DNA of 33,217 nucleotides from positions 1-33,217 of the forward strand of contig JAGAVH010000018.1 in NCBI GenBank assembly GCA_017942025.1. Reading direction: 5' to 3'. Both the position numbers and the translations under genes were made by a program. The stretch is from Ruminiclostridium sp. (GTDB lineage: Bacteria > Bacillota > Clostridia > Oscillospirales > Ruminococcaceae). Positions 368 to 26,506 of this stretch are shown here, piece by piece. Under the pieces are notes generated by a model that did not search any database, was not told where the DNA came from, and saw only the letters and a program-made list of their open reading frames with translations. Positions within the stretch are counted from its first letter, which is position 1; every line of letters starts with the position of its first letter.

Positions 368-425
368 TATGTAAATTGTTAATTTAATTCCATTTTAATA
401 AATGAAAAAAATTTGGAGGAAATAT

Positions 426-2402
426 ATGGCGGTTTTCAGATGTAAAATGTGTGGCGGCGATCTTGATGTTACAGATACCTCCACCAATATATTTACTTGT
501 AAGTATTGTAACACACAGCAGACGATACCTACCCTTGACAGCGAAAAGAAAGTAAATCTTTTCTCCCGTGCCAACAGACTTCGTATGAATAACGAGTTTG
601 ATAAGGCGGCAGGTATTTACGAAACGATAGCGTCCGAATTTATAGAGGAGGCAGAAGCTTACTGGGGACTTTGTCTTTGCAAATACGGTATAGAGTATGT
701 TGACGACCCTGCTACCGCAAAGAAGATACCCACTTGTCACCGTACCTCATACCAGAGCATTTTTGAGGATGAAAACTTCACTACCGCTCTTCAGTATTCT
801 GATGCAGAGGCTACGTCTGTATATCGTAGGGAAGCAAAGGAAATTGACAGACTGCAAAAGGAGATACTAAGCGTTGCGGCTAACGAAGAGCCCTTCGATA
901 TCTTTATATGCTATAAGGAAACCGATGAGGAGGGCGAGCGTACAAAGGACAGCGTTTTAGCTCAGGAGATATATGACGCTCTCACAGAAAAGGGTTATAA
1001 GGTGTTCTTTTCAAGAATTACTCTGGAGGATAAGCTTGGTAAGGCGTACGAGCCTTATATCTTTGCGGCTTTAAGCTCTGCGAAGATAATGCTTGCGGTA
1101 GGTACAAAGTATGAGTATTTCAATGCGGTATGGGTAAAGAACGAGTGGGGAAGATTCCTTGAAATGATGAAGGAGGATAAGAGCAAGACTCTCATTCCCT
1201 GCTATGCTGATATTGATGCTTATGATATGCCTGCCGAATTCAAGAACTTCCAGGGACAGGATATGACCAAGATAGGCTTTAAGCAGGACCTTGTCAGAGG
1301 TATTGCCAAGCTTATGGGAGGCGGAACGCCTGCACCTGTTACATATGCGGCGGCAGCTCCTACTCTTGATAAATGCATAGAAAATGCCGAAGTGTATATG
1401 AATTTGAAGAATTATCCTGCGGCTTATGAAACGTATCAGACAATGACCCGTGAATATCCAGGTCATTACCTCGGCTGGTGGGGACTTATCATTGCTTCAT
1501 CAAGAAATCTGACTGCAGTTTCAGACGAAGACGAAAACAAGATAAAGGAATGGTACGGCTATGCTTTAAGTCTTGCTGATGACGGTCAGAAGGCTGAAAT
1601 CAAGTCTGAAATGAAAGAATATCTCCGTATCAAATCTTCGGCCTATGCAGAAGGCTCAAGGGATATGTACAGCGAGATGCTTGCAAGGGCAAACGGTATG
1701 ATAAAAGCGTCAGAATCAGCTATCCAGAAGGAAGAAAGACGTGTTGCCGATGCCATAAAATCCTGCAACCATAATATTGAACGTCAGAAAGACGATATAA
1801 AGGAATGCCGCAGTCTTATAAAAAAATACGGTACACTTAAAAACAGAATAACAAGAGCAAAGGTTACTAAATTCTTTTTCACACTTGGTATTATCACGCT
1901 TATTGTTTGTTTCTTTATAGCTATTTCCACCCCGAAGTCAGAATCGCAGGAAATAAATGATATAGTTTCGGTTGTTGCTTCGATTGCTCTTATCGGGACA
2001 CTGGTTATGGCGCTCGTTCATGCTATATCATCAAGCCTTGTTAATTCCTTCAGACGAAAGAATCCGGGCGTATCTGCATATTCGCCAAGTGTGTGTAAGG
2101 CTAATATGAGGGACTTAGGCAGTCAGATAAACAAGAATAATGCCGCTATAGAAGTATATCAAGGACAGCTTGCAGAGCTTTCAAATCCCGAAAACAGAAT
2201 AATTGAAGAAAATAAACGTCGGATAGAGCTTACAAGAAATGCTATTGCGGATATCGAAGCGATAAAGGATGACAGAGAAAATATCGCTTTATATGATTTC
2301 TACTTATCCTGCAAGGATTACGGATGCGAAACACCTACTCTTAACGAAGCCTTTGTACCCGTCTGGGATAAAGCAATGGCAGCTATGAAATTTATCGGAT
2401 GA
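426..2402 (+). CDS. Zinc-ribbon, TIR domain and membrane-anchored protein
   Basis: A protein of 658 residues. The N-terminus is a four-cysteine zinc ribbon (Cys 6, 9, 25, 28). A helical TPR-like stretch follows (about 40-95). A TIR domain runs from FDIFICYK at residue 157 to about 290 and includes NEWGRF, whose Glu240 is at the position of the catalytic glutamate of NAD-cleaving TIR domains. Next come a second TPR-like stretch (about 320-420), a coiled coil, two hydrophobic segments (about 482-502 and 512-535) and a second coiled coil. The start is taken at ATG 426 because GGAGGA at 415-420 is correctly placed; an upstream in-frame ATG at 402 has no ribosome site. The gene is single, with its own promoter and terminator. 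Bacterial TIR proteins are often NADases of anti-phage defence, but this soluble-plus-membrane layout may instead be a housekeeping or stress sensor. The function is inferred. Confidence 0.85.
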   Translation: MAVFRCKMCGGDLDVTDTSTNIFTCKYCNTQQTIPTLDSEKKVNLFSRANRLRMNNEFDKAAGIYETIASEFIEEAEAYWGLCLCKYGIEYVDDPATAKKIPTCHRTSYQSIFEDENFTTALQYSDAEATSVYRREAKEIDRLQKEILSVAANEEPFDIFICYKETDEEGERTKDSVLAQEIYDALTEKGYKVFFSRITLEDKLGKAYEPYIFAALSSAKIMLAVGTKYEYFNAVWVKNEWGRFLEMMKEDKSKTLIPCYADIDAYDMPAEFKNFQGQDMTKIGFKQDLVRGIAKLMGGGTPAPVTYAAAAPTLDKCIENAEVYMNLKNYPAAYETYQTMTREYPGHYLGWWGLIIASSRNLTAVSDEDENKIKEWYGYALSLADDGQKAEIKSEMKEYLRIKSSAYAEGSRDMYSEMLARANGMIKASESAIQKEERRVADAIKSCNHNIERQKDDIKECRSLIKKYGTLKNRITRAKVTKFFFTLGIITLIVCFFIAISTPKSESQEINDIVSVVASIALIGTLVMALVHAISSSLVNSFRRKNPGVSAYSPSVCKANMRDLGSQINKNNAAIEVYQGQLAELSNPENRIIEENKRRIELTRNAIADIEAIKDDRENIALYDFYLSCKDYGCETPTLNEAFVPVWDKAMAAMKFIG

Positions 2403-5174: not shown

Positions 5175-6377
5175 TTAACCTCTAAGGAAATATATAAGCC
5201 AACCTTCGTCATAGCCGAGTTGCTCTTTTCTATCCGTAAGGTCTACACGCTCAATATAAACATTGAAAGTGTCTCCTGCTTCCATATATCCGCCACTCAC
5301 ACTTGATGCAACTTGCCCCATTACATATTCATCACCTTCAAGGTTTCTCTTGAATATCCAAGCGGGTGTGTTTTTGTGGACTTGCATAGGTGGAAACCAA
5401 GTGCTACCCTCAAACTTATAGTCGGGGTCGTAAACTAAACCATAATTGTTTACAGCGTCGTCTATGATATACTGCTTGATAGCGTTAAAATCAAAGGGAT
5501 AGTGATACATAGCTTCTACAGGGTCAGTCAAAACAACATCAGAACGCTTTACATACAAGCCATCTTCTCGCTTGTAGCAATCCTTACTTTTGATATACTC
5601 TACAACCTTGAACTCTGTACCAGTCCATTCCATCCAAGAATATGTGCCAATTAACTTATCTAAAGGCTCGGATGTTTCACTGTATACAAAAGTACCGTCG
5701 TTTGCTTGTGCCACTCTTATATCAGTGCAATCAGCGTCCAGATATAAGCGAACATTAGGTCTTGCAGAATAAACCGTAAGGTCAACCTGTTCAGCATCAG
5801 ACGCTACAGGAGCTTCTGTCTGTGGCTTGGTTGTTGTAGTTGTTGTAACAGTAACCTTATTATCGCTTAAATAATCGAGATGTATAAATGTACCGTCACT
5901 GAGCTTGCCGTAACCTGTATCTGTAGTGGCTGTTATAGTAACCTTGTCGTTTACATTATAGAGCTTTGCGGTTTCAGCACCCATTACAGCTTCTTTGCGA
6001 GAGTAACATCCTGTGTTTATATACATGGTTTTATTACATTCGCTTTCTGTCCACTGTGGTGCAGGTACTGTAGTTTCAGGTGCAGTAGTAGTTGTAGTGG
6101 TTTCAGGCGCTGTAGTTGTTGTAGTTTCTGGTGCAGTGGTAGTAGTGGTTTCAGGTGCAGTAGTTGTTGTTTCGGCAGTAGTTTCTGATACAGTGGTAGT
6201 TGTTTCAGGTTTTGTAGTTGTAGTAGTTGTTGTGGTGATTTCTTCCTTTGTTACTGTAGTAGAAACTGTAGTTGTCGATTCGTTTTTAGCGTTATTGGTT
6301 TCGCATCCCGTTAAAACTACTGTTAAAGATAACAGCGCAACAAGAGTTGTAATAATGATTGATTTCCTTTTTTTCAT
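5175..6377 (-). CDS. Lipoprotein with Thr-rich repeat stalk and SH3-like domain
   Basis: A protein of 400 residues starting at ATG 6377, preceded by AAAAGGAAAAGG. An upstream in-frame extension would give an implausible 47-residue leader, so this start is preferred. The signal peptide ends at LTGC (Cys25). A Thr-rich stalk (about 35-110) has tandem APETTTTT repeats. A bacterial SH3-like domain follows (NTGCYSRKEA ... YLSDN, about 120-180), then a second short Thr linker (about 182-193) and a roughly 200-residue C-terminal region with Trp and Tyr that I do not recognise. SH3b domains commonly bind the cell wall. Probably surface-exposed; ligand unknown. Confidence 0.85.
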   Translation of the reverse strand: MKKRKSIIITTLVALLSLTVVLTGCETNNAKNESTTTVSTTVTKEEITTTTTTTTKPETTTTVSETTAETTTTAPETTTTTAPETTTTTAPETTTTTTAPETTVPAPQWTESECNKTMYINTGCYSRKEAVMGAETAKLYNVNDKVTITATTDTGYGKLSDGTFIHLDYLSDNKVTVTTTTTTKPQTEAPVASDAEQVDLTVYSARPNVRLYLDADCTDIRVAQANDGTFVYSETSEPLDKLIGTYSWMEWTGTEFKVVEYIKSKDCYKREDGLYVKRSDVVLTDPVEAMYHYPFDFNAIKQYIIDDAVNNYGLVYDPDYKFEGSTWFPPMQVHKNTPAWIFKRNLEGDEYVMGQVASSVSGGYMEAGDTFNVYIERVDLTDRKEQLGYDEGWLIYFLRG

Positions 6378-6724: not shown

Positions 6725-6919
6725 TTATAATTGTACGCCATTGATTACAATAGGCACCTTGTCTAAATCAACAAATGCTTCTGAATATCCGTTTAATACT
6801 TCTCTTTCAAAATGAGAATTTCGTCCCAATCTTTTATAATCAAGAAATGAATATGGTGTACATATTGTCTTAACACTTAATCTTCTTTGCCGTTGTTTCT
6901 TTGTATACACACTATACAC
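6725..6919 (-). pseudogene. Short frame or gene remnant overlapping the methyltransferase 3' end
   Basis: A 64-codon frame whose first part lies inside the methyltransferase gene. The only start is a GTG at 6919 with no visible ribosome site. The last 50 residues (from SVKTICTPYSF to DKVPIVINGVQL) read like a real protein tail and are followed by a good terminator. The likeliest explanation is the 3' end of a gene whose front was lost by deletion; a genuine miniprotein is possible. Family not recognised. Confidence 0.35.
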
Positions 6920-8049
6920 TCTACATGCCTCGTATGCGGAAACATATCCACAGGCTGAATCTTTTCCGCTCTGTAGCCCTTATGTAAAAGATACTGCATA
7001 TCTCTTGCAAGGGTTTCGGGGTTGCAGGAAATGTAAACTATTCTTCTTGGCGACAGCTTTACAAGACTTTGCAGAAACTCTCTGCTACAGCCTGCTCTTG
7101 GCGGATCGGTGAATACAACGTCTGCCTTTTCGCCCTTTTCGGCAAGAGCAACCATAAATTTCCCTGCGTCGTCACAGAAAAATTCTACGCTTGTGATACT
7201 ATTCAGCTCCGCATTTTTAATAGCGTCATCGATAGCCGACTGATTTACTTCAACGCCGATTACCTTCTTTACCTTTTCAGCGGCAATAAGTCCTATTGTA
7301 CCCGTGCCGCAGTAGGCGTCAATTACTACGTCGGAGAGCTTTAAGTCGGCAAGCTCCATAGTCTTGCTATAAAGATATTCCGTCTGAACGGGATTTATCT
7401 GATAGAAGGAACGGGGGCTTATGCGGAATTTCAGTCCGCATAAAATATCCTCGATATATCCGTCGCCATAGAGAATCTCGTTTTTTTCACCGAGGGCAAG
7501 AAAAAGCTCTGTATCGTTTATATTCCATACTATGGTTTTTATATCGGGGAATTTATTTATAAGCGCATTGACAAAGGAACGCACTGACGGGAATTTACCC
7601 TCGGCAGTCACGATAACTACCATAATTTCATTTGTAGCAAAGCCTCTTCTTATCAGCAGGTGACGGACAAAGCCTGTTCCTGCTTCTTCGTTATACGGCT
7701 TCATCTTGAAGCTGTCAAAAAGCTTGCGACAGGCTAACGCAATTTCATTTGATAGCTTATCCTCGATAAGACAGTTTTCTGTTTCGGTTATTCTGCCTGT
7801 TACCGATTGATAAATGCCTGAGGTCAGTTTGCCGTTTTTCTTGAAAAACGCCGCCTGCATCTTGTTGCGGTAATGGTAGGGACAGTCCATACCCTTTATT
7901 TCATCTACATGGCAGAACTTTCCCATAAGCTTTATTACTCTTGTCTGCTTGAAGCTCAGCTGGGAGGGGTAATTCAGGTTTCCCAGCTGACAGCCACTGC
8001 ACTTTTTTATATAGGGACAGCTTTTAATGTTTTCTGTTGTTTCTGACAT
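6877..8049 (-). CDS. rlmCD: 23S rRNA (uracil-5-)-methyltransferase, RlmCD/RumA family
   Basis: A protein of 390 residues. An iron-sulphur cluster is indicated by Cys11, Cys17, Cys20 and Cys93, with spacing like RumA. The SAM site is DAYCGTGTIGL (about 244-254), FTDPPRAG (313-320) holds motif IV, ISCNPETLARD (340-350) carries the catalytic Cys342, and HVECI provides Glu378 as the general base. It methylates C5 of uridine in 23S rRNA (in Firmicutes one enzyme handles U747 and U1939). The N-terminal TRAM domain of the longer relatives is absent, so the protein starts directly at the cluster. Which uridine it modifies cannot be told from the sequence. Confidence 0.92.
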   Translation of the reverse strand: MSETTENIKSCPYIKKCSGCQLGNLNYPSQLSFKQTRVIKLMGKFCHVDEIKGMDCPYHYRNKMQAAFFKKNGKLTSGIYQSVTGRITETENCLIEDKLSNEIALACRKLFDSFKMKPYNEEAGTGFVRHLLIRRGFATNEIMVVIVTAEGKFPSVRSFVNALINKFPDIKTIVWNINDTELFLALGEKNEILYGDGYIEDILCGLKFRISPRSFYQINPVQTEYLYSKTMELADLKLSDVVIDAYCGTGTIGLIAAEKVKKVIGVEVNQSAIDDAIKNAELNSITSVEFFCDDAGKFMVALAEKGEKADVVFTDPPRAGCSREFLQSLVKLSPRRIVYISCNPETLARDMQYLLHKGYRAEKIQPVDMFPHTRHVECIVCIQRNNGKED

Positions 8050-9137: not shown

Positions 9138-10112
9138 ATGAACAGAAAAAAACGAACCAGATACAGTAAAAGTACATTGTTTATGATAGCATTATCAGTT
9201 ATAGTGATAGCAGGCACTTATCTTGTGCTTATAATTCCAACGGCACTAAAAAACAGATTGCCCGGGGTTGCTGTCATATCTCCGATAACTATAAGCTATA
9301 CCCCTTCGGTCGATTGCAAGGGAATTATAGAATATTCGGAGCTTTATAGTATTACCGCCGATATGCCTGTAGTGCTGTCCCGTGTTTTTGTAGCGAGGGG
9401 CGACAAGGTTGACGAAGGGCAGGCAATAGCTGAAATAGATAAGGAAAAGACTATAGCTGTTTTATCAGAGCTTTACGGAGATACAGGCTTTGAATCGGGA
9501 GAATTATATACAGCACTCAGAAAAGCCGGCGAAAGGGTAGTGGCGACAGATTCGGGAGTTATCTACGACATAGCACGAAAGGGCGAAGTTATAATGTCAG
9601 GCGACGACATAGTACAGATAGGCAGAGATAACAACTTGTCAATGACTGCTGTTGTTTCTGAAAAAAGCATCTCAAAGGTGGGAGTTGGACAGCAGGTGGA
9701 GATTATTGCCGAGGCGGTTGAGGAAGGCTTTTCGGGTGAAGTAGTATCGGTGAGCTCTCTTGCCTCAAAGCTTAATAACGGTATGTCAGAGGAGGCTGTC
9801 GTTGAGGTGGAAATCACTATAAAGGGTGATACAAAAAAGCTTAAAAGCGGATATACCGCCAGTGGAAAAATTCTGACAGGGCTTCCTTCCAGCCTGCTTA
9901 CCCTTCCTTACAGTGCGATATGTCAGGATGATAAGGGCGAATATGTGTATGTTTTTGAAAAGGGAAGAGCGGCAAAGCGGTATATCAGGACTGGCAGAGA
10001 GCTTTCCGACTGTACAGAGGTTTCGGGACTTATGCAGACGGATTTTGTTATAGACAGACCTGAAGGACTGAAAGATGGTATGCTGGTTAAGGCAAGGGAG
10101 GGGACAGAGTGA
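9138..10112 (+). CDS. MacA/HlyD-type membrane fusion (adaptor) protein
   Basis: A protein of 324 residues. A positively charged N-terminus precedes one membrane anchor (about 14-36). A split biotinyl-lipoyl-like hairpin follows: VLSRVFVARGDKVDEGQAIAEIDKEK (about 81-106) and ATDSGVIYDIARKGEVIMSGDDIVQIG (about 137-163). After it come beta-barrel domains with VGVGQQVEII...F.GEVVSVSS. The helical hairpin between the lipoyl halves is very short, as in Gram-positive adaptors that have no outer membrane channel to reach. ATG 9138 follows GGAAAGG at 9117-9123 with a rather long gap. Its last bases overlap the permease start (GTGA). Confidence 0.88.
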   Translation: MNRKKRTRYSKSTLFMIALSVIVIAGTYLVLIIPTALKNRLPGVAVISPITISYTPSVDCKGIIEYSELYSITADMPVVLSRVFVARGDKVDEGQAIAEIDKEKTIAVLSELYGDTGFESGELYTALRKAGERVVATDSGVIYDIARKGEVIMSGDDIVQIGRDNNLSMTAVVSEKSISKVGVGQQVEIIAEAVEEGFSGEVVSVSSLASKLNNGMSEEAVVEVEITIKGDTKKLKSGYTASGKILTGLPSSLLTLPYSAICQDDKGEYVYVFEKGRAAKRYIRTGRELSDCTEVSGLMQTDFVIDRPEGLKDGMLVKAREGTE

Positions 10113-11422: not shown

Positions 11423-11496
11423 GCGGGTGTAGTTCAATGGTAGAATGTCAGCCTTCCAAGCTGAACACGTGGGTTCGATTCCCATCACCCGCTCCA
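11423..11496 (+). tRNA. tRNA-Gly (UCC)
   Basis: A full cloverleaf of 74 bases including an encoded CCA. Acceptor GCGGGTG pairs with CACCCGC, the anticodon loop is CTTCCAA (anticodon TCC), and the T-loop is TTCGATT. Confidence 0.97.
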
Positions 11497-11530
11497 TCGC
11501 TGAAAAGCGAGTAAATATGATCGACCATAC

Positions 11531-11607
<77 letters not shown>

Positions 11608-11612
11608 TCTAT

Positions 11613-11690
11613 GGTGGGTGTAGCGTAGCTGGTTAACGCGTCGGATTGTGGTCCCGAAGATCGTGGGTTCGAGTCCCATCTCCCACCCCA
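11613..11690 (+). tRNA. tRNA-His (GUG)
   Basis: 78 bases with encoded CCA and the extra 5' G typical of tRNA-His opposite a C discriminator. The anticodon loop is TTGTGGT (anticodon GTG). One T-T mismatch is seen in the acceptor stem (6-67). Confidence 0.95.
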
Positions 11691-11703
11691 TATTTACAAA
11701 TCC

Positions 11704-11746
11704 CGTCCTGCACTGAGGCATACTGAGTGCCGGACGTTTTATTTTT
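11704..11746 (+). terminator. Terminator after tRNA-His
   Basis: CGTCC (11704-11708) and GGACG (11732-11736) close a stem that also pairs GCACT with AGTGC, followed by TTTTATTTTTAT. tRNA-Gln lies just past it, so that tRNA depends on read-through or its own promoter. Confidence 0.8.
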
Positions 11747-11750
11747 ATAT

Positions 11751-11825
11751 TGGGATGTAGCCAAGCGGTAAGGCAACGGACTTTGACTCCGTCACCCGTG
11801 GGTTCAAATCCCGCCATCCCAGCCA
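11751..11825 (+). tRNA. tRNA-Gln (UUG), likely prophage attachment target
   Basis: 75 bases with encoded CCA. Acceptor TGGGATG pairs with CATCCCA, and the anticodon loop is CTTTGAC (anticodon TTG). It is the last host gene before the phage integrase, which points at it; tRNA 3' ends are classic tyrosine-integrase targets. Confidence 0.97.
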
Positions 11826-11898: not shown

Positions 11899-11926
11899 AC
11901 GCCATTATTACGCCAATGCTACGCCA
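11899..11926. repeat. Three 11-bp-phased ACGCCA repeats (possible integrase arm sites)
   Basis: ACGCCA at 11899-11904, 11910-11915 and 11921-11926, i.e. exactly 11 bp (about one helical turn) apart. They straddle the integrase stop codon, about 75-100 bp from the end of tRNA-Gln. Phased direct repeats near att are how arm-type sites of lambda- and Tn916-like integrases look. Confidence 0.5.
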
Positions 11927-13007
11927 GACTGTACGTTTTTACTGCCATAATAAGTGTCTGCAAATCATCCATATGGGTATAACCGCCGGTTACTTCCAGG
12001 GAGTGATGACCGAGAATCTTCGACACTATCGCTACCGGCATTCCCTTCTTTTGCATCAGCGTACTGTAGGTGTGACGGGTGCTGTGTGGCGGTAAGACTT
12101 CTATAATCGGTTTGCCATCTTCGGTGAGTTTCTTGTTCAGACGGTCAAAGAACCAGGTGTATCTGCTACGCAGACCCGATTCGGTTATTATATGATCGTC
12201 AATTATATACGGCTGCTCTCTGTTCAGTTTTTCAGCGATAAAGGTCATTACGTTTTCATTTACCGGGACTATCCTCGGCTTTCCGTTTTTAGGCTTTCCG
12301 ATACTGCCATCTCTTTTTACAGCGGTATCTATACGGATTATATTGTTCTGAAAATCGAACTTATCCGGGGACAATGCTCTTAACTCTCCGCTACGTATTC
12401 CTGATGAAAGTAAGATGATTATCGGCAGGCCGAAAAGCTCATCCGTTTTCGCAAATTCGAGTATCTGTGTAGCCTGATCTTCGGTGTAGCTCTTCTTTTC
12501 TCCCTGCTCTTTTTTCGCAATCTGTGCTCTTGCGACGGGGTTTTTATAGCAATAGTCGTTGTCTATCGCATCTGAAAAAAGACCGTGAAGAAGAAAGCGC
12601 AGGCGTTTTCTGACGCTATGGCTATAATTACAGCCGGCGAAAAAGTCCGTGATATGGATAGGTTTAATATCGGTCAGATACATTTTTCCGAGCTTGTGAG
12701 CGGTGACCTTGCCGAGCAGATACACATACTCGTCATAAGTGCTTGACTGCACGTTGTTACGCTTGTAGGTGTTCAGCCAGAGCGGAATCCATTCTGCGAG
12801 GGTATATTCGACAGAAGCTCTTGTCTGTTCTCCGATACCCTTCAGATGCTCTTTGTATTTGCGACGGCATTCCGCTTCGGTATTTCCGTAAAACCTTTTA
12901 CGGATACGCTGACCGTAAATGTCATAACCTTCGGAGATGGTAAGCTCTATCTTACCATTTTTGAGAGTTCTGAAGGAGCCGTCACCGTGTTTTCTGTTTT
13001 TTGACAT
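11919..13007 (-). CDS. int: Phage tyrosine recombinase (integrase)
   Basis: A protein of 362 residues. The N-terminal arm-binding domain (about 1-60) has the GSFR.L.NGK start common in Gram-positive integrases, the SAM-like core-binding domain is at about 65-155, and the catalytic domain is at about 173-355. Catalytic residues visible: Arg205 (SSGIRSGE), a Lys in GKPKNGKPR, His308 and Arg311 (PPHSTRHTY), His334 (LGHHS) and the nucleophile Tyr343 (GGYTHM). ATG 13007 has AAGGGGGA upstream; a start 8 codons earlier would put the ribosome site inside the gene. It catalyses integration into and excision from the tRNA-Gln site. Confidence 0.95.
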   Translation of the reverse strand: MSKNRKHGDGSFRTLKNGKIELTISEGYDIYGQRIRKRFYGNTEAECRRKYKEHLKGIGEQTRASVEYTLAEWIPLWLNTYKRNNVQSSTYDEYVYLLGKVTAHKLGKMYLTDIKPIHITDFFAGCNYSHSVRKRLRFLLHGLFSDAIDNDYCYKNPVARAQIAKKEQGEKKSYTEDQATQILEFAKTDELFGLPIIILLSSGIRSGELRALSPDKFDFQNNIIRIDTAVKRDGSIGKPKNGKPRIVPVNENVMTFIAEKLNREQPYIIDDHIITESGLRSRYTWFFDRLNKKLTEDGKPIIEVLPPHSTRHTYSTLMQKKGMPVAIVSKILGHHSLEVTGGYTHMDDLQTLIMAVKTYSLA

Positions 13008-13025
13008 AAAAATCCCCCTTAAAAC

Positions 13026-13054
13026 TTGCATAATTTTAAGAGGTGTGATATAAT
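13026..13054 (+). promoter_or_regulatory. Promoter of a predicted phage small RNA
   Basis: TTGCAT (13026-13031) and TATAAT (13049-13054), spacer 17, on the strand opposite to int. The -10 lies inside the left arm of a 14-bp inverted repeat (13041-13054 with 13075-13088, 13 of 14 pairs). Confidence 0.65.
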
Positions 13055-22981: not shown

Positions 22982-23008
22982 AAATATACAGGAAAGGAGG
23001 AATAGACC

Positions 23009-24892
23009 ATAAAAAAAGAAAACGCTGAAAAAATAGCGGAACTTTGCGATAATAAAGAGCTTTCCGAAAAAATAGAAAAGCTCTTTAAGGATATAGAGGA
23101 ATATACAAAGGATGATTTTCTGAACGGCACGGAGCCTTATGAATACTGCTGTATGTTTCTCGGCAATCGTTTTGAGTTTGAACAGCAGAAAAACAAGATG
23201 TCCGACGTAGCGAAGAAATGCGGTGTGCGGAACTTCCTTTCAATGCTCGGCCATTATTGTACGAAGGTCGGCTATGACGTGGCGGATAATAACTATACCA
23301 ATTTTCCCGATCAGCCGATAACTTTAAGCTGTGGCTCTTACACCTGCGATATGCTTGGGGTAAGAAGTGATACGGATACCGTCTGCCCTCATCCTATAAT
23401 GCCGGTTATGAGATTATCAAACATCGATACAGGCATTGAAAAGGTAAAGATAGCCTACACAAAAGGCCGTGGCTGGAAATCTCTTATAGTCGACAGAAAG
23501 ACCATTTCTGCCGCAAGTAAGATTGTAGATTTATCAGACAGCGGTATAGCCGTTACCAGCGAATCAGCAAAGGCACTTGTTAAGTATTTCGCTAAAATAG
23601 AGCAGCTGAATATGAAGCTATTACCTGAAACCGAATGTGTAACAAGACTCGGCTGGATAGATAAGGATGACGAGCATTTATTCTCGCCTTACGTTGATGG
23701 AATCAGTTTTGATGGTGAGACGGAATATAAAAAGCACTATGACAGCGTAAAGATAAAAGGCGATTTTGCGGGCTGGACGGAGCTTACGAAAAGAGTTATC
23801 CGCAATAACAACGTGGCGGCAAGAATGGTTTTTGCCGCAAGTCTTGCAAGTGTTCTTGTAAAGCCTCTCGGGTGTAACTGCTTCTGGCTTCATCTCTGGG
23901 GAGAAACTGAAAGCGCAAAGACGGTACTTGCTATGGTGGCGGCGTCTGTGTGGGGGAATCCTGAAATAGGCAGCTTTATACATACCTTCAATTCCACCTT
24001 TGTGGGAATGGAGAAGACAGCCGCTTTCTATAACAATCTGCCCTATATACTCGATGAGCTTCAGATCGTAAACGACAAGAAGGATCTTGACAATCTGATA
24101 TATATGCTGACAGAAGGAAGCGGCAGAAGCCGAGGTAATAAGCTCGGCGGGCTCGAAACCGTACCAAAGTGGAAGAATGCCACTATCACCACGGGAGAAC
24201 GCCCGATAGTCACCGCCAGAAGTGGCGGCGGAAGTGTCAACCGTGTACTTGAAATTGAATGCAAGGAGAAATTCTTTGCAGAGCCGAGAGAGGTCGCAAA
24301 TTACGTAAAGGCAAACTACGGCGCTATGGGTAAGCTGTTTATAGCTTATTTGCAGGAAAAAGGCTTTTCTCACGCTGAGGAGCTTTTTACAGCCTATCAG
24401 AAGAAGCTCGTAGCTGAATATGACATAATGCAGAAGCAGGCACAATCTGCCGCACTTATCCTTACCGCTGACACGATAGCAGGAGAACTGCTCTATGGCG
24501 AGGATACCAATCTCACTACAGACGATATAGCGGTATATCTTAAAACAAAAGACGATGTATCGGTAAATCCCAGAGCATACGAGTACGTATGTGAGTACGT
24601 GGCTACAAATCAGCTGCATTTCATTCGTAGCGAAGAGCGTCTTATAGATATGTGGGGCGAGCTTCGGGGAGATGAGGTTTATATCATAAAATCCAAATTC
24701 ACACAGATATGTGATGAAGGAGGATATAACGCCCAGAGCCTTTTAAGCTGGCTTGCAGATAAAGGACTCATTGAGCGAAAGAACGGAAAGAACACTGTTA
24801 CAAAGAAGATTATAGGCGTAACTACAAGGTGCGTGCATTTGTCATTGCCGAGTGAAAGCGGTGATGATATACACGACGATATCGACTTTTAG
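23009..24892 (+). CDS. DUF927-family phage helicase/primase-like protein, AUA start
   Basis: A protein of 627 residues. DUF927 motifs: Walker-A-like WGETESAKT (about 297-305), Walker-B-like LPYILDELQIV, and NATITTGERPI as sensor. A C-terminal winged-helix-like domain (about 520-600) follows. The frame is closed by TAG at 23003-23005, and no ATG, GTG or TTG occurs before codon 49. AAGGAGG at 22994-23000 sits before ATA 23009 with normal spacing, and the codons from there are plainly coding (helical, charged). Probably the replicative helicase of the phage, beside the proposed origin. Confidence 0.85.
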   Translation: MKKENAEKIAELCDNKELSEKIEKLFKDIEEYTKDDFLNGTEPYEYCCMFLGNRFEFEQQKNKMSDVAKKCGVRNFLSMLGHYCTKVGYDVADNNYTNFPDQPITLSCGSYTCDMLGVRSDTDTVCPHPIMPVMRLSNIDTGIEKVKIAYTKGRGWKSLIVDRKTISAASKIVDLSDSGIAVTSESAKALVKYFAKIEQLNMKLLPETECVTRLGWIDKDDEHLFSPYVDGISFDGETEYKKHYDSVKIKGDFAGWTELTKRVIRNNNVAARMVFAASLASVLVKPLGCNCFWLHLWGETESAKTVLAMVAASVWGNPEIGSFIHTFNSTFVGMEKTAAFYNNLPYILDELQIVNDKKDLDNLIYMLTEGSGRSRGNKLGGLETVPKWKNATITTGERPIVTARSGGGSVNRVLEIECKEKFFAEPREVANYVKANYGAMGKLFIAYLQEKGFSHAEELFTAYQKKLVAEYDIMQKQAQSAALILTADTIAGELLYGEDTNLTTDDIAVYLKTKDDVSVNPRAYEYVCEYVATNQLHFIRSEERLIDMWGELRGDEVYIIKSKFTQICDEGGYNAQSLLSWLADKGLIERKNGKNTVTKKIIGVTTRCVHLSLPSESGDDIHDDIDF

Positions 24893-25178
24893 TAACACCC
24901 GGTAACACGAAAGTAACACCCGGGGTGTTACCGCTCAAACCCTCTTATAGAGTGGTTTTACAAAGACGGTAACACCGGTAACACCTTTTTCGGATATAAC
25001 ACTTATATATAATTAAAAATTTTTCAAAACTGCAAAATTTTATTATTTCCCATGCGAGAAACACGTTTTTAGGTGTTACCGGTGTTACCGAAGTCCGCAA
25101 ACCCGCTTGTAAAGTGGGATTGATACGGTAACACCTTGACGAAAAGCAGGGTGTTACCAAGGTGTTACCGGTGTTACC
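24892..25178. repeat. Candidate phage replication origin with 12 mirrored GGTAACACC iterons
   Basis: This is the only gap over 250 bp in the early operon. GGTAACACC (one mismatch allowed) occurs forward at 24891, 24901, 24912, 24968, 24977 and 25127 and reversed (GGTGTTACC) at 24924, 25072, 25081, 25150, 25161 and 25170. Order: F F F R F F, then an 85-bp AT-rich core (24986-25071), then R R F R R R, a mirror image. Each arm also holds one copy of an imperfect stem-loop with CAAACCC.CTT.TA.AGTGG (24935-24953 and 25098-25117). It lies between the DUF927 and DExH helicase genes. Confidence 0.75.
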
Positions 25179-25201
25179 CGACGTAAAAAGGAGATGATAA
25201 C

Positions 25202-26506
25202 ATAGAGCTATATGATTATCAGAGTAATCTTATAACAGAGCTTCGTACAAGCTGGCGTGCAGGCTTTCGGCGTCCTTGCCTTGTGCTTCCCTGCGGTGGC
25301 GGTAAGAGCGTCATTGCTTCCGAAATAGCAAAGAGAACGACCGACAATAAAAACGAGGTAATGTTTCTTGTACATCGTCAGGAGCTGTGTCAACAGATAA
25401 CGGATACCTTTACTGCTTACGGCGTTGATATGGATCTATGCAGCGTCAATATGGTGCAGACGGCAACACGTCATCTTGACAGATATAAACCCTCTCTGAT
25501 TATTACAGATGAAAATCATCACTGCCTTGCCACTACCTACAGAAGAATATACGAGGCTTACAGTAACGCCTACTGTGTAGGACTTACTGCAACTCCTGTA
25601 AGGCTTGGCGGCGGAGGACTGGGAGACGTCAACGACAAGCTGATTATAGGACCATCGGTAAAGTGGCTTATAGAAAATAAAAGGCTTGCACCCTATAGCT
25701 ACTATGCACCAAGCCTTGCGGACGTGTCGGTGCTTAAAACAAGAGCAGGCGACTATTCTGCCGATGAAGCTGAAATACTGCTTGATAAACCGAAAATATA
25801 CGGTGACGTGATAAGGTATTACAGACTGCTTGCGGATAATCAGAAGGCAGTATGCTATTGCTCTACAAGAAAGCATTCAAAGACTATGGCACAGCAGTTC
25901 GTGAAGGCAGGTATAACGGCAGAGCATATTGACGGAGAAACGCCCGAAAACAAAAGGGCGGAAATAATAAAGGCGTTCCGCAGGGGTGATATAAAGATAC
26001 TCTGCAACGTGGATCTTATCAGCGAGGGCTTTGACGTGCCTGACTGCACGGTATCTATACTGCTCCGTCCTACAAAGAGCCTTACTCTTTTTATCCAGCA
26101 GTCAATGAGGTGTATGAGATATCAACCCAATAAAAAGGCTATAATCATAGACCACGTCGGAAACGTTCATCGGCACGGACTGCCTGACGCTGACAGAGAG
26201 TGGAGCTTATCTCCGAAAAAGCTCACCAAAAAGCAGACGGAGGCTAAAGTAAAGATAAAGCAATGTCCCAACTGCTTCTACACTCATGAGCCTGACAGGT
26301 ACTGTCCTAATTGCGGTCACGTTTATGAGCTTACGAGAGAGGAGCTGAAGGAACAGCAGGAAGCAAGGCTTATGCAGATAACTTCCGCTTATAAATCTCC
26401 CGACCAGTGCCGAAATGTTCAGGAATTACATGCTTTCGTCAAAAACAAAGGCTATAAATCAGGATATGCATATATCCTCGCAAAGCAAAGGGGGTGGCTG
26501 AGATAA
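25202..26506 (+). CDS. DExH-box superfamily 2 helicase with zinc ribbon, AUA start
   Basis: A protein of 434 residues. It begins (AUA)ELYDYQSNLITELR, the usual Q-motif opening of this helicase class. Walker A is LPCGGGKS (about 29-36), the DExH box is TDENHH, motif III is GLTATP, and motif VI is FIQQSMRCMRYQP. A C-terminal zinc ribbon has CPNC and CPNC about 16 residues apart. The first standard start is a GTG at 25283, immediately before Walker A, which would delete the Q-motif. AAGGAGATG at 25188-25196 fits ATA 25202; a stop (TAA 25184-25186) closes the frame upstream. Confidence 0.88.
   Translation: MELYDYQSNLITELRTSWRAGFRRPCLVLPCGGGKSVIASEIAKRTTDNKNEVMFLVHRQELCQQITDTFTAYGVDMDLCSVNMVQTATRHLDRYKPSLIITDENHHCLATTYRRIYEAYSNAYCVGLTATPVRLGGGGLGDVNDKLIIGPSVKWLIENKRLAPYSYYAPSLADVSVLKTRAGDYSADEAEILLDKPKIYGDVIRYYRLLADNQKAVCYCSTRKHSKTMAQQFVKAGITAEHIDGETPENKRAEIIKAFRRGDIKILCNVDLISEGFDVPDCTVSILLRPTKSLTLFIQQSMRCMRYQPNKKAIIIDHVGNVHRHGLPDADREWSLSPKKLTKKQTEAKVKIKQCPNCFYTHEPDRYCPNCGHVYELTREELKEQQEARLMQITSAYKSPDQCRNVQELHAFVKNKGYKSGYAYILAKQRGWLR

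What the first reader, a model, noticed from the sequence alone, without database searches (positions are those of the whole stretch)
23009..25204. Two phage replication genes appear to start at AUA codons
For the DUF927 gene the frame is closed by TAG at 23003-23005 and holds no ATG, GTG or TTG until codon 49. AAGGAGG lies at 22994-23000 in front of ATA 23009. For the DExH helicase the frame is closed by TAA at 25184-25186, and the first standard start (GTG 25283) would begin just before Walker A and delete the Q-motif. AAGGAGATG at 25188-25196 lies in front of ATA 25202. Aligning both sites to AAGGAGGTG leaves 6 and 5 bases before the ATA, so the placement is nearly identical. Seen directly: the frames, stops and ribosome sites. 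Known: near-cognate AUU starts exist (E. coli infC) and are sensitive to IF3; AUA is rarer. Inferred: low or IF3-dependent initiation may limit replication helicases in the lysogen. Standard gene callers would truncate both proteins.
Basis: partly seen in the sequence, partly recalled or inferred. Interest (0 to 1): 0.85.

Follow-up and report, generated by a model that had tools for sequence, protein, structure and literature searches.

The report
AUA starts in phage replication genes
Two replication genes of a prophage in a gut-type bacterium appear to begin at the very rare start codon AUA, and related phages repeatedly carry other weak start codons at the same two places, which suggests that these genes are kept at low output.

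Summary
In detail: both frames are closed by a stop, have a strong Shine-Dalgarno (SD) site, and no ATG/GTG/TTG before codon 49 (DUF927) or 28 (DExH helicase). Homologues support the AUA starts. In its own group, 14 of 22 DExH genes have ATG exactly at ATA 25202, and four near DUF927 relatives have TTG exactly at ATA 23009. AUA is not a one-off. Of 18 distinct DExH loci behind a repeat-rich, origin-like gap, 6 have no canonical start near the site (ATA, or ACG once), against 1 of 113 other DExH loci and 3 of 315 sites in 17 other phage gene families. The tree needs at least five changes, four of them in this group, and rejects a single ATA clade. DUF927 relatives use TTG, ATA or ATC as well as ATG. 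The SD sites are stronger than average. The same host genus appears to start infC at ATC or ATA. Near-cognate starts behind strong SDs are known (infC, S. aureus ccpN, Streptomyces sigR); their recurrence on genes flanking a phage origin looks new. That they limit expression, or depend on IF3, is inference.

The parts
22994..23000 (+). Shine-Dalgarno AAGGAGG of the DUF927 gene, 8 bases before ATA
   Evidence: sequence; duplex with a 16S tail -16.3 kcal/mol
23009..24892 (+). DUF927 helicase / initiator-type gene, start codon ATA
   Evidence: PF06048 and HTH_56; TTG starts of four relatives align at 23009; PDB relatives 8tch and 5dgk
24893..25183 (.). origin-like gap: GGTAACACC / GGTGTTACC repeats in both orientations around an AT-rich middle
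   Evidence: a role in replication is inference
25188..25198 (+). Shine-Dalgarno AAGGAGATGAT of the DExH gene, with TGAT extension
   Evidence: sequence; -12.8 kcal/mol; extension in register
25202..26506 (+). DExH/ResIII helicase gene, start codon ATA
   Evidence: ATG of homologues aligns at 25202; invariant L3, Y6, Q7, G21, P25, C26 lie before the first canonical start
25195..25221 (+). possible hairpin that takes in the start codon ATA
   Evidence: -6.8 kcal/mol, z -3.3; weak counterpart in L169, none in L093

Best explanation
Both genes are read from AUA by initiator tRNA, placed by strong Shine-Dalgarno sites (supported by the starts of homologues; not shown by protein data). In this group of phages, mostly of Oscillospiraceae, the two genes on either side of an iteron-like origin, an MCM-like DUF927 helicase and a DExH helicase, repeatedly carry weak starts (AUA, AUC, ACG, UUG) behind strong SDs. 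The likeliest role is a standing brake: poor P-site pairing, screened by IF3, keeps the yield of these helicases low (inferred). What seems to be kept is that one of the pair is weak, rather than which codon is used.
For: Start sites. Recurrence: at least 5 changes to or from a non-canonical start among 30 rows, one of them L205 outside the group; ATA as one clade rejected, p 2.6e-7. Control: 6 of 18 origin-linked DExH loci against 1 of 113 other DExH loci (p 1.9e-5) and 3 of 315 sites of 17 other families (p 7.8e-7); without L182, nearly identical to L178, 5 of 17 against 1 of 113 (p 1.2e-4). Pair: 13 of 17 readable origin-linked loci have a non-ATG start in at least one of the two genes (by hand). 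SD energy: median -14.7 for 11 near-cognate sites against -11.3 for 2057 ATG sites, p 2e-4. infC of the same genus: ATC in 29 of 31 loci, ATA in 2. Precedents: three S. aureus near-cognate sites give about 10% of AUG in poor medium, ccpN AUA up to 30% in rich medium (PMC13009471, passages); Streptomyces sigR GTC is repressed by IF3 (PMC5472188, passages).
Against: No proteomic, profiling or reporter data. L169 (both genes) and L100 (DExH) also have an in-frame GTG two or three codons upstream, inside the SD. The p-values treat related loci as independent. Strong SDs may simply compensate, so net yield need not be low. Four origin-linked loci (L092, L170, L173, L245) have ATG at both genes. Among more distant relatives, 19 of the 60 rows shown match only from residue 26-31, and some are annotated from there. 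The host 16S tail was not found in the incomplete assembly.
Confidence: 0.8

Rival explanations
1. AUA is the true start but carries no regulation: weak codons drift in wherever the SD is strong enough to compensate.
For: Near-cognate sites have stronger SDs; four origin-linked loci keep ATG at both genes.
Against: Concentrated in origin-linked helicases (6 of 18) and rare in 17 other families of the same phages (3 of 315); recurs.
Confidence: 0.22
2. The proteins start at the internal canonical codons ATG 23153 and GTG 25283.
For: They are the first ATG/GTG/TTG in frame; some distant Listeria and Staphylococcus phage helicases are annotated from near or after Walker A.
Against: GTG 25283 drops invariant Y6, Q7, G21, P25, C26; ATG 23153 drops the invariant F26-Y46 block; no SD at either by eye. 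In the four distant loci inspected the LREYQ part is present just upstream in another frame.
Confidence: 0.03
3. Start-codon loss: the genes are dead in this lysogen, or the assembly has an error.
For: The assembly is a draft of 83% completeness.
Against: L169, from another genome and 70% identical at the helicase, has ATA at both sites with full open frames; L093, L095, L178, L182 repeat ATA at the helicase.
Confidence: 0.02
4. A short upstream frame (ATG 25194, M-I-T-stop) feeds the helicase by re-initiation or a frame change.
For: ATG ATA ACA TAG overlaps ATA 25202 in the window.
Against: That ATG lies against the SD; by eye the relatives L093, L095, L176 and L178 have no common frame of this kind. 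DUF927 has none.
Confidence: 0.04

Closest known systems
S. aureus ccpN, infC and citZ AUA starts with extended SD (PMC13009471, passages seen)
   Same: AUA codon behind a strong SD; for ccpN conserved between S. aureus and B. subtilis
   Different: Host genes with measured yield; here phage replication genes, and the codon changes between relatives
infC near-cognate start under IF3 (AUU in E. coli, ATC in Streptomyces; PMC5472188, passages seen)
   Same: Near-cognate start; the same host genus has ATC or ATA at infC
   Different: No feedback loop is expected, as the product is not IF3
Streptomyces sigR GTC start repressed by IF3 (PMC5472188, passages seen)
   Same: Rare codon with a very extensive RBS holding down one partner of a pair
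   Different: Other codon, host gene, shown by experiment
Pathogenicity-island protein 8tch and 'active helicase' 5dgk (SaPI Rep and SCCmec helicase, names recalled)
   Same: DUF927-type protein by profile match; here beside a repeat-rich gap
   Different: Start codons of those genes were not examined

Membership tests
Near-cognate start with strong SD (ccpN / infC type) | Codon one base from ATG at the homologue-defined site, no canonical alternative nearby | tested here: met
   ATA at both sites
Near-cognate start with strong SD (ccpN / infC type) | Unusually strong or extended SD | tested here: met
   -12.8 and -16.3 kcal/mol; 11 near-cognate sites median -14.7 against -11.3. TGAT extension in register at the window's DExH gene, not at its DUF927 gene; 5 of 8 near-cognate DExH sites have TGA in register
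Near-cognate start with strong SD (ccpN / infC type) | Codon identity conserved among relatives | tested here: not met
   Of the nearest relatives only L169 shares ATA; others ATG or TTG, further ones ATA, ACG, ATC
Near-cognate start with strong SD (ccpN / infC type) | Yield below AUG; IF3 sensitivity | not testable with these tools
   needs reporter or proteomic data
DUF927 / Cch-type helicase | DUF927 domain and Cch-type HTH | tested here: met
   PF06048 E 9.1e-47, PF18662 E 3.1e-21; 8tch, 5dgk
DUF927 / Cch-type helicase | Initiator binds repeats of an adjacent origin (recalled for SaPI Rep) | tested here: inconclusive
   Repeat-rich gap next to the gene; binding untested
DExH/ResIII helicase | SF2 helicase domains with N-terminal YQ | tested here: met
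   PF04851, PF00271; invariant Y6, Q7 in 16 rows

The most novel reading that the evidence does not exclude
A conserved translational brake: phages of this group keep at least one, sometimes both, of the two helicase genes flanking their iteron origin on a near-cognate or UUG start with a reinforced SD, so that the dose of the replication helicases follows the IF3 and ribosome state of the host; selection holds the weakness of the start while the codon itself drifts (AUA, AUC, ACG, UUG).
Probability: 0.35. Interest if true: 0.8.

Novelty: new variant of a known kind. Interest (0 to 1): 0.64.

Why it matters
Standard callers allow only ATG, GTG and TTG (recalled; PMC5472188 makes the same point in a passage seen), so such replication proteins lose conserved N-termini in phage catalogues. 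If the weakness is selected, start-codon choice would be a way in which temperate phages set helicase dose and tie it to host initiation factors; it also offers a natural set of AUA, AUC and ACG starts in Clostridia. My searches for earlier reports (open-licence papers only; one search listed 25 of 58 papers) gave host-gene cases and, in what was listed, none in phage replication genes.

Tried and rejected
P0001 alone found no relative in viral contigs; an alignment found 12. A first survey of start codons was spoiled by antisense frames; filtered it is cleaner but insensitive: of the origin-linked near-cognate DExH sites it recovers only L093. Hence the same-method family control. Its 315 control sites are uneven: VRR-NUC gives 135 and the Gam-like family 51. 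The window starts given there for the Gam-like and phrog18107 genes were approximate; ATT is not the start of the latter. The 16S tail was not found in the host genome. The start-codon hairpin is striking in the window (z -3.3), weak in L169, absent in L093; the L178 stretch given lay after its start, so it is not part of the explanation. My hand list of origin-linked loci first had 17 entries and missed L245, which has a repeat-bearing gap too and ATG; recounted with it. In one search one Fisher line (8/8 against 0/11) rests on counts typed by hand and is not used; the script's own count is 5 of 8 against 0 of 7 (p 0.026). Frameshift and dead-gene readings: see rivals.

Full report
OBSERVATION. 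DUF927 gene: TAG 23003, AAGGAGG 22994-23000, eight bases, ATA 23009; first ATG/GTG/TTG in frame at 23153, codon 49. DExH gene: TAA 25184, AAGGAG 25188-25193, eight bases, ATA 25202; first canonical start GTG 25283, codon 28. The window is contig 40 of a 2.5-Mb assembly of 83% completeness.

WHAT THE GENES ARE. P0001 matches DUF927 (9.1e-47) and the Cch helix-turn-helix (3.1e-21); P0002 matches ResIII and Helicase_C. A DUF927 profile finds two distinct solved chains, a pathogenicity-island protein (8tch) and an 'active helicase' (5dgk); that these are SaPI Rep and the SCCmec helicase is recalled. PHROGs names P0001 a primase/helicase and P0002 a DNA helicase; genes upstream match Gam-like and Sak4-like families. 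Between the two genes lie about 290 bases of GGTAACACC/GGTGTTACC repeats in both orientations with an AT-rich middle. This looks like an iteron origin; its function is inferred.

DO HOMOLOGUES START THERE? DExH: 36 viral loci, then the best 80 of 236 viral and the best 80 of 157 genomic relatives (some are the same phage twice). Of these 160 loci 8 were dropped: one at a contig edge, seven whose match begins after residue 8; of the seven, four are cut by the contig end and three (L126, L247, L248) have other reasons. Of the remaining 152, 69 have ATG exactly at the codon aligned with ATA 25202, and most others have a canonical start within a few codons. In the window's own group 14 of 22 have ATG exactly there. 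Six of 152 have no canonical start from six codons before to three after: L093, L095, L178, L182 (ATA), L176 (ACG) and L205 (ATT one codon on). L169 (ATA) and L100 (ACG) have besides an in-frame GTG three codons earlier that lies within the SD and so is an unlikely start; I count them as probable only. DUF927: the nearest relatives are L169 (66%), L003, L004, L171 and L172 (53-58%). L003, L004, L171 and L172 have TTG exactly in the column of ATA 23009; L169 has ATA with a one-residue difference in length, and a GTG two codons earlier inside the SD. Of three further near relatives, L302 and L303 have TTG and L301 ATG. So 8 of 9, window included, lack ATG. More distant: ATC in L042 (eight-base SD match; no canonical start from the upstream stop to 20 codons past the match start), in L010(=L099), L179 and L180 (SD AAGGAGGTGAT; by eye the stretch upstream of the SD differs by an indel between L010 and L179 while that after ATC is the same), and probably in L041; TTG in L043, L305, L307; GTG in L306 and L040; ATG in others. 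The N-terminal codons are constrained as protein: invariant L3, Y6, Q7, G21, P25, C26 in 16 DExH rows and a block from F26 to Y46 in six DUF927 rows. Substitutions are commonest at third positions there, though less so than in the rest (0.40 against 0.57 for DExH, 0.47 against 0.55 for DUF927, window against L169).

A RESULT THAT LOOKED CONTRARY. Of the 60 phage records shown (2126 had a match), 19 match only from residue 26-31, close to GTG 25283; they are Listeria and Staphylococcus phages. In three inspected records the gene is annotated from near or after Walker A. But in these three and in L247 the sequence directly upstream encodes the missing LREYQ...PCG-type part in another frame, with a stop just at Walker A, and L126 shows the same. 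So these are interrupted or recoded genes, not helicases that begin at Walker A. I did not follow this further.

IS IT MORE THAN CHANCE? For 19 window genes, start sites were projected on the loci held and scored for a canonical start from -12 to +6 codons. DExH: 7 of 131 distinct sites have none; DUF927: 1 of 6; the other 17 families together 3 of 315, of which only L116 (VRR-NUC, ATC) looks real. Origin-linked DExH loci (a gap over 100 bases with repeats upstream, listed by hand) number 18 including L245; 6 have none (window, L093, L095, L178, L182, L176), against 1 of 113 others (p 1.9e-5) and 3 of 315 (p 7.8e-7); without L182, nearly identical to L178, 5 of 17 against 1 of 113 (p 1.2e-4). 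Elsewhere the helicase mostly overlaps or closely follows an upstream frame. These p-values treat related loci as independent. The tree is the better guide: among 30 rows the non-canonical state changes at least 5 times, one of them L205 outside the group (L169 and L100 scored as near-cognate), and a single ATA clade is rejected (p-AU 2.6e-7). Parsimony cannot say which state is ancestral.

THE PAIR. By locus (DUF927 / DExH): window and L169 ATA/ATA; L300(=L003, L090), L091(=L004), L171 and L172 TTG/ATG; L179 ATC/ATG; L093(=L006), L095(=L008), L178 and L182 ATG/ATA; L176 and L100(=L012) ATG/ACG; L092(=L005), L170, L173 and L245 ATG/ATG; L097 cannot be read, its DUF927 start being off the contig (compiled by hand). 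So 13 of 17 readable loci have a non-ATG start in at least one of the two; for L169 and L100 this holds even if GTG is the start. The general make-up at homologue-supported sites is ATG 867, TTG 84, GTG 35.

SHINE-DALGARNO. Eleven near-cognate sites pair with a 16S tail at a median -14.7 kcal/mol, against -11.3 for 2057 ATG starts taken as the best-paired start of each frame, which favours the ATG set (p 2e-4). In-register TGA after the core: 5 of 8 near-cognate DExH sites, 0 of 7 ATG sites of the same group with a placeable core (7 of 14 had none), 11% of 1436 ATG sites. By eye the other three of the eight show TGAT one base out of register.

CAN THE HOST DO IT? infC was found in 67 of 71 genomes of the genus; the 30 best loci and the window's own were read. 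The codon at the presumed start is ATC in 29 of 31 and ATA in 2, behind a strong SD; 24 of 31 also have an in-frame GTG within the SD, 7 do not, and three (L284, L288, L292) have an ATG a few codons further in. The window's own genome has ATC. So this genus appears to initiate at AUC and AUA itself.

MECHANISM. Supported: site, recurrence, SD strength. From papers seen in passages: S. aureus near-cognate sites give about 10% of the AUG yield in poor medium and up to 30% for ccpN in rich medium (PMC13009471); IF3 represses the GTC start of Streptomyces sigR, which has a very extensive RBS (PMC5472188). Inferred: the helicases are held at low yield and the yield responds to IF3. Neutral drift under strong SDs is the main rival.

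KNOWN OR NEW. Near-cognate starts, AUA included, are known. New as far as my searches go is their recurrence on phage replication genes flanking an origin-like gap. Hence a new variant of a known kind.

Noticed in passing
L311 (PSA) and L312, L313 around 560-640; L247 around 5630-5680; L126 around 6914-7020: In DExH relatives of Listeria, Staphylococcus and one Clostridia-like phage the N-terminal part and the rest lie in different frames, with a stop codon exactly at Walker A, at the same place in all five. 19 of the 60 rows shown match only from residue 26-31. This may be a conserved recoding site; described only.
   Followed up: partly
window 24893-25183; also upstream of the DExH gene in L169, L090, L091, L171, L172, L170, L173, L092, L095, L093, L097, L179, L176, L100, L245: Each phage has its own 8-base repeat in the gap before the helicase (GGTAACAC, GGTGAAAC, GTAACCAC, TGGTTACA, GTCACCAC, GTAACGAC, GGTGTAAC, AATTTCAC, GTGTAACA, ACCGCCAA, GTCCCACA, GTGGAACA, GGGGAACA, GTCTTACA): iterons that seem to diverge with their phage.
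   Followed up: partly
window 25195-25221; L169 about 9774-9801: The helicase start codon of the window lies in a predicted hairpin made by the TGATAA of the SD extension and the TTATCA of the coding start (-6.8 kcal/mol, z -3.3); weaker in L169, none in L093.
   Followed up: partly
G000:C28 (L299) and L269-L298: infC appears to start at ATC (29 of 31) or ATA (L286, L294) in this genus.
   Followed up: yes
L116, L222, L145: Other candidate near-cognate starts: ATC of a VRR-NUC-like gene, ATT behind a nine-base SD match of an HNH-like gene, ATA of a ParB-like gene (gene names by eye).
   Followed up: no
window 11423-11825 and 11919-13031: Four tRNA genes (Gly, Arg, His, Gln) directly beside an integrase-like gene, a likely attachment site.
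   Followed up: no
window 402-2402: A 666-aa host-side protein whose middle reads like a TIR domain after a zinc-ribbon-like start (by eye, no search).
   Followed up: no
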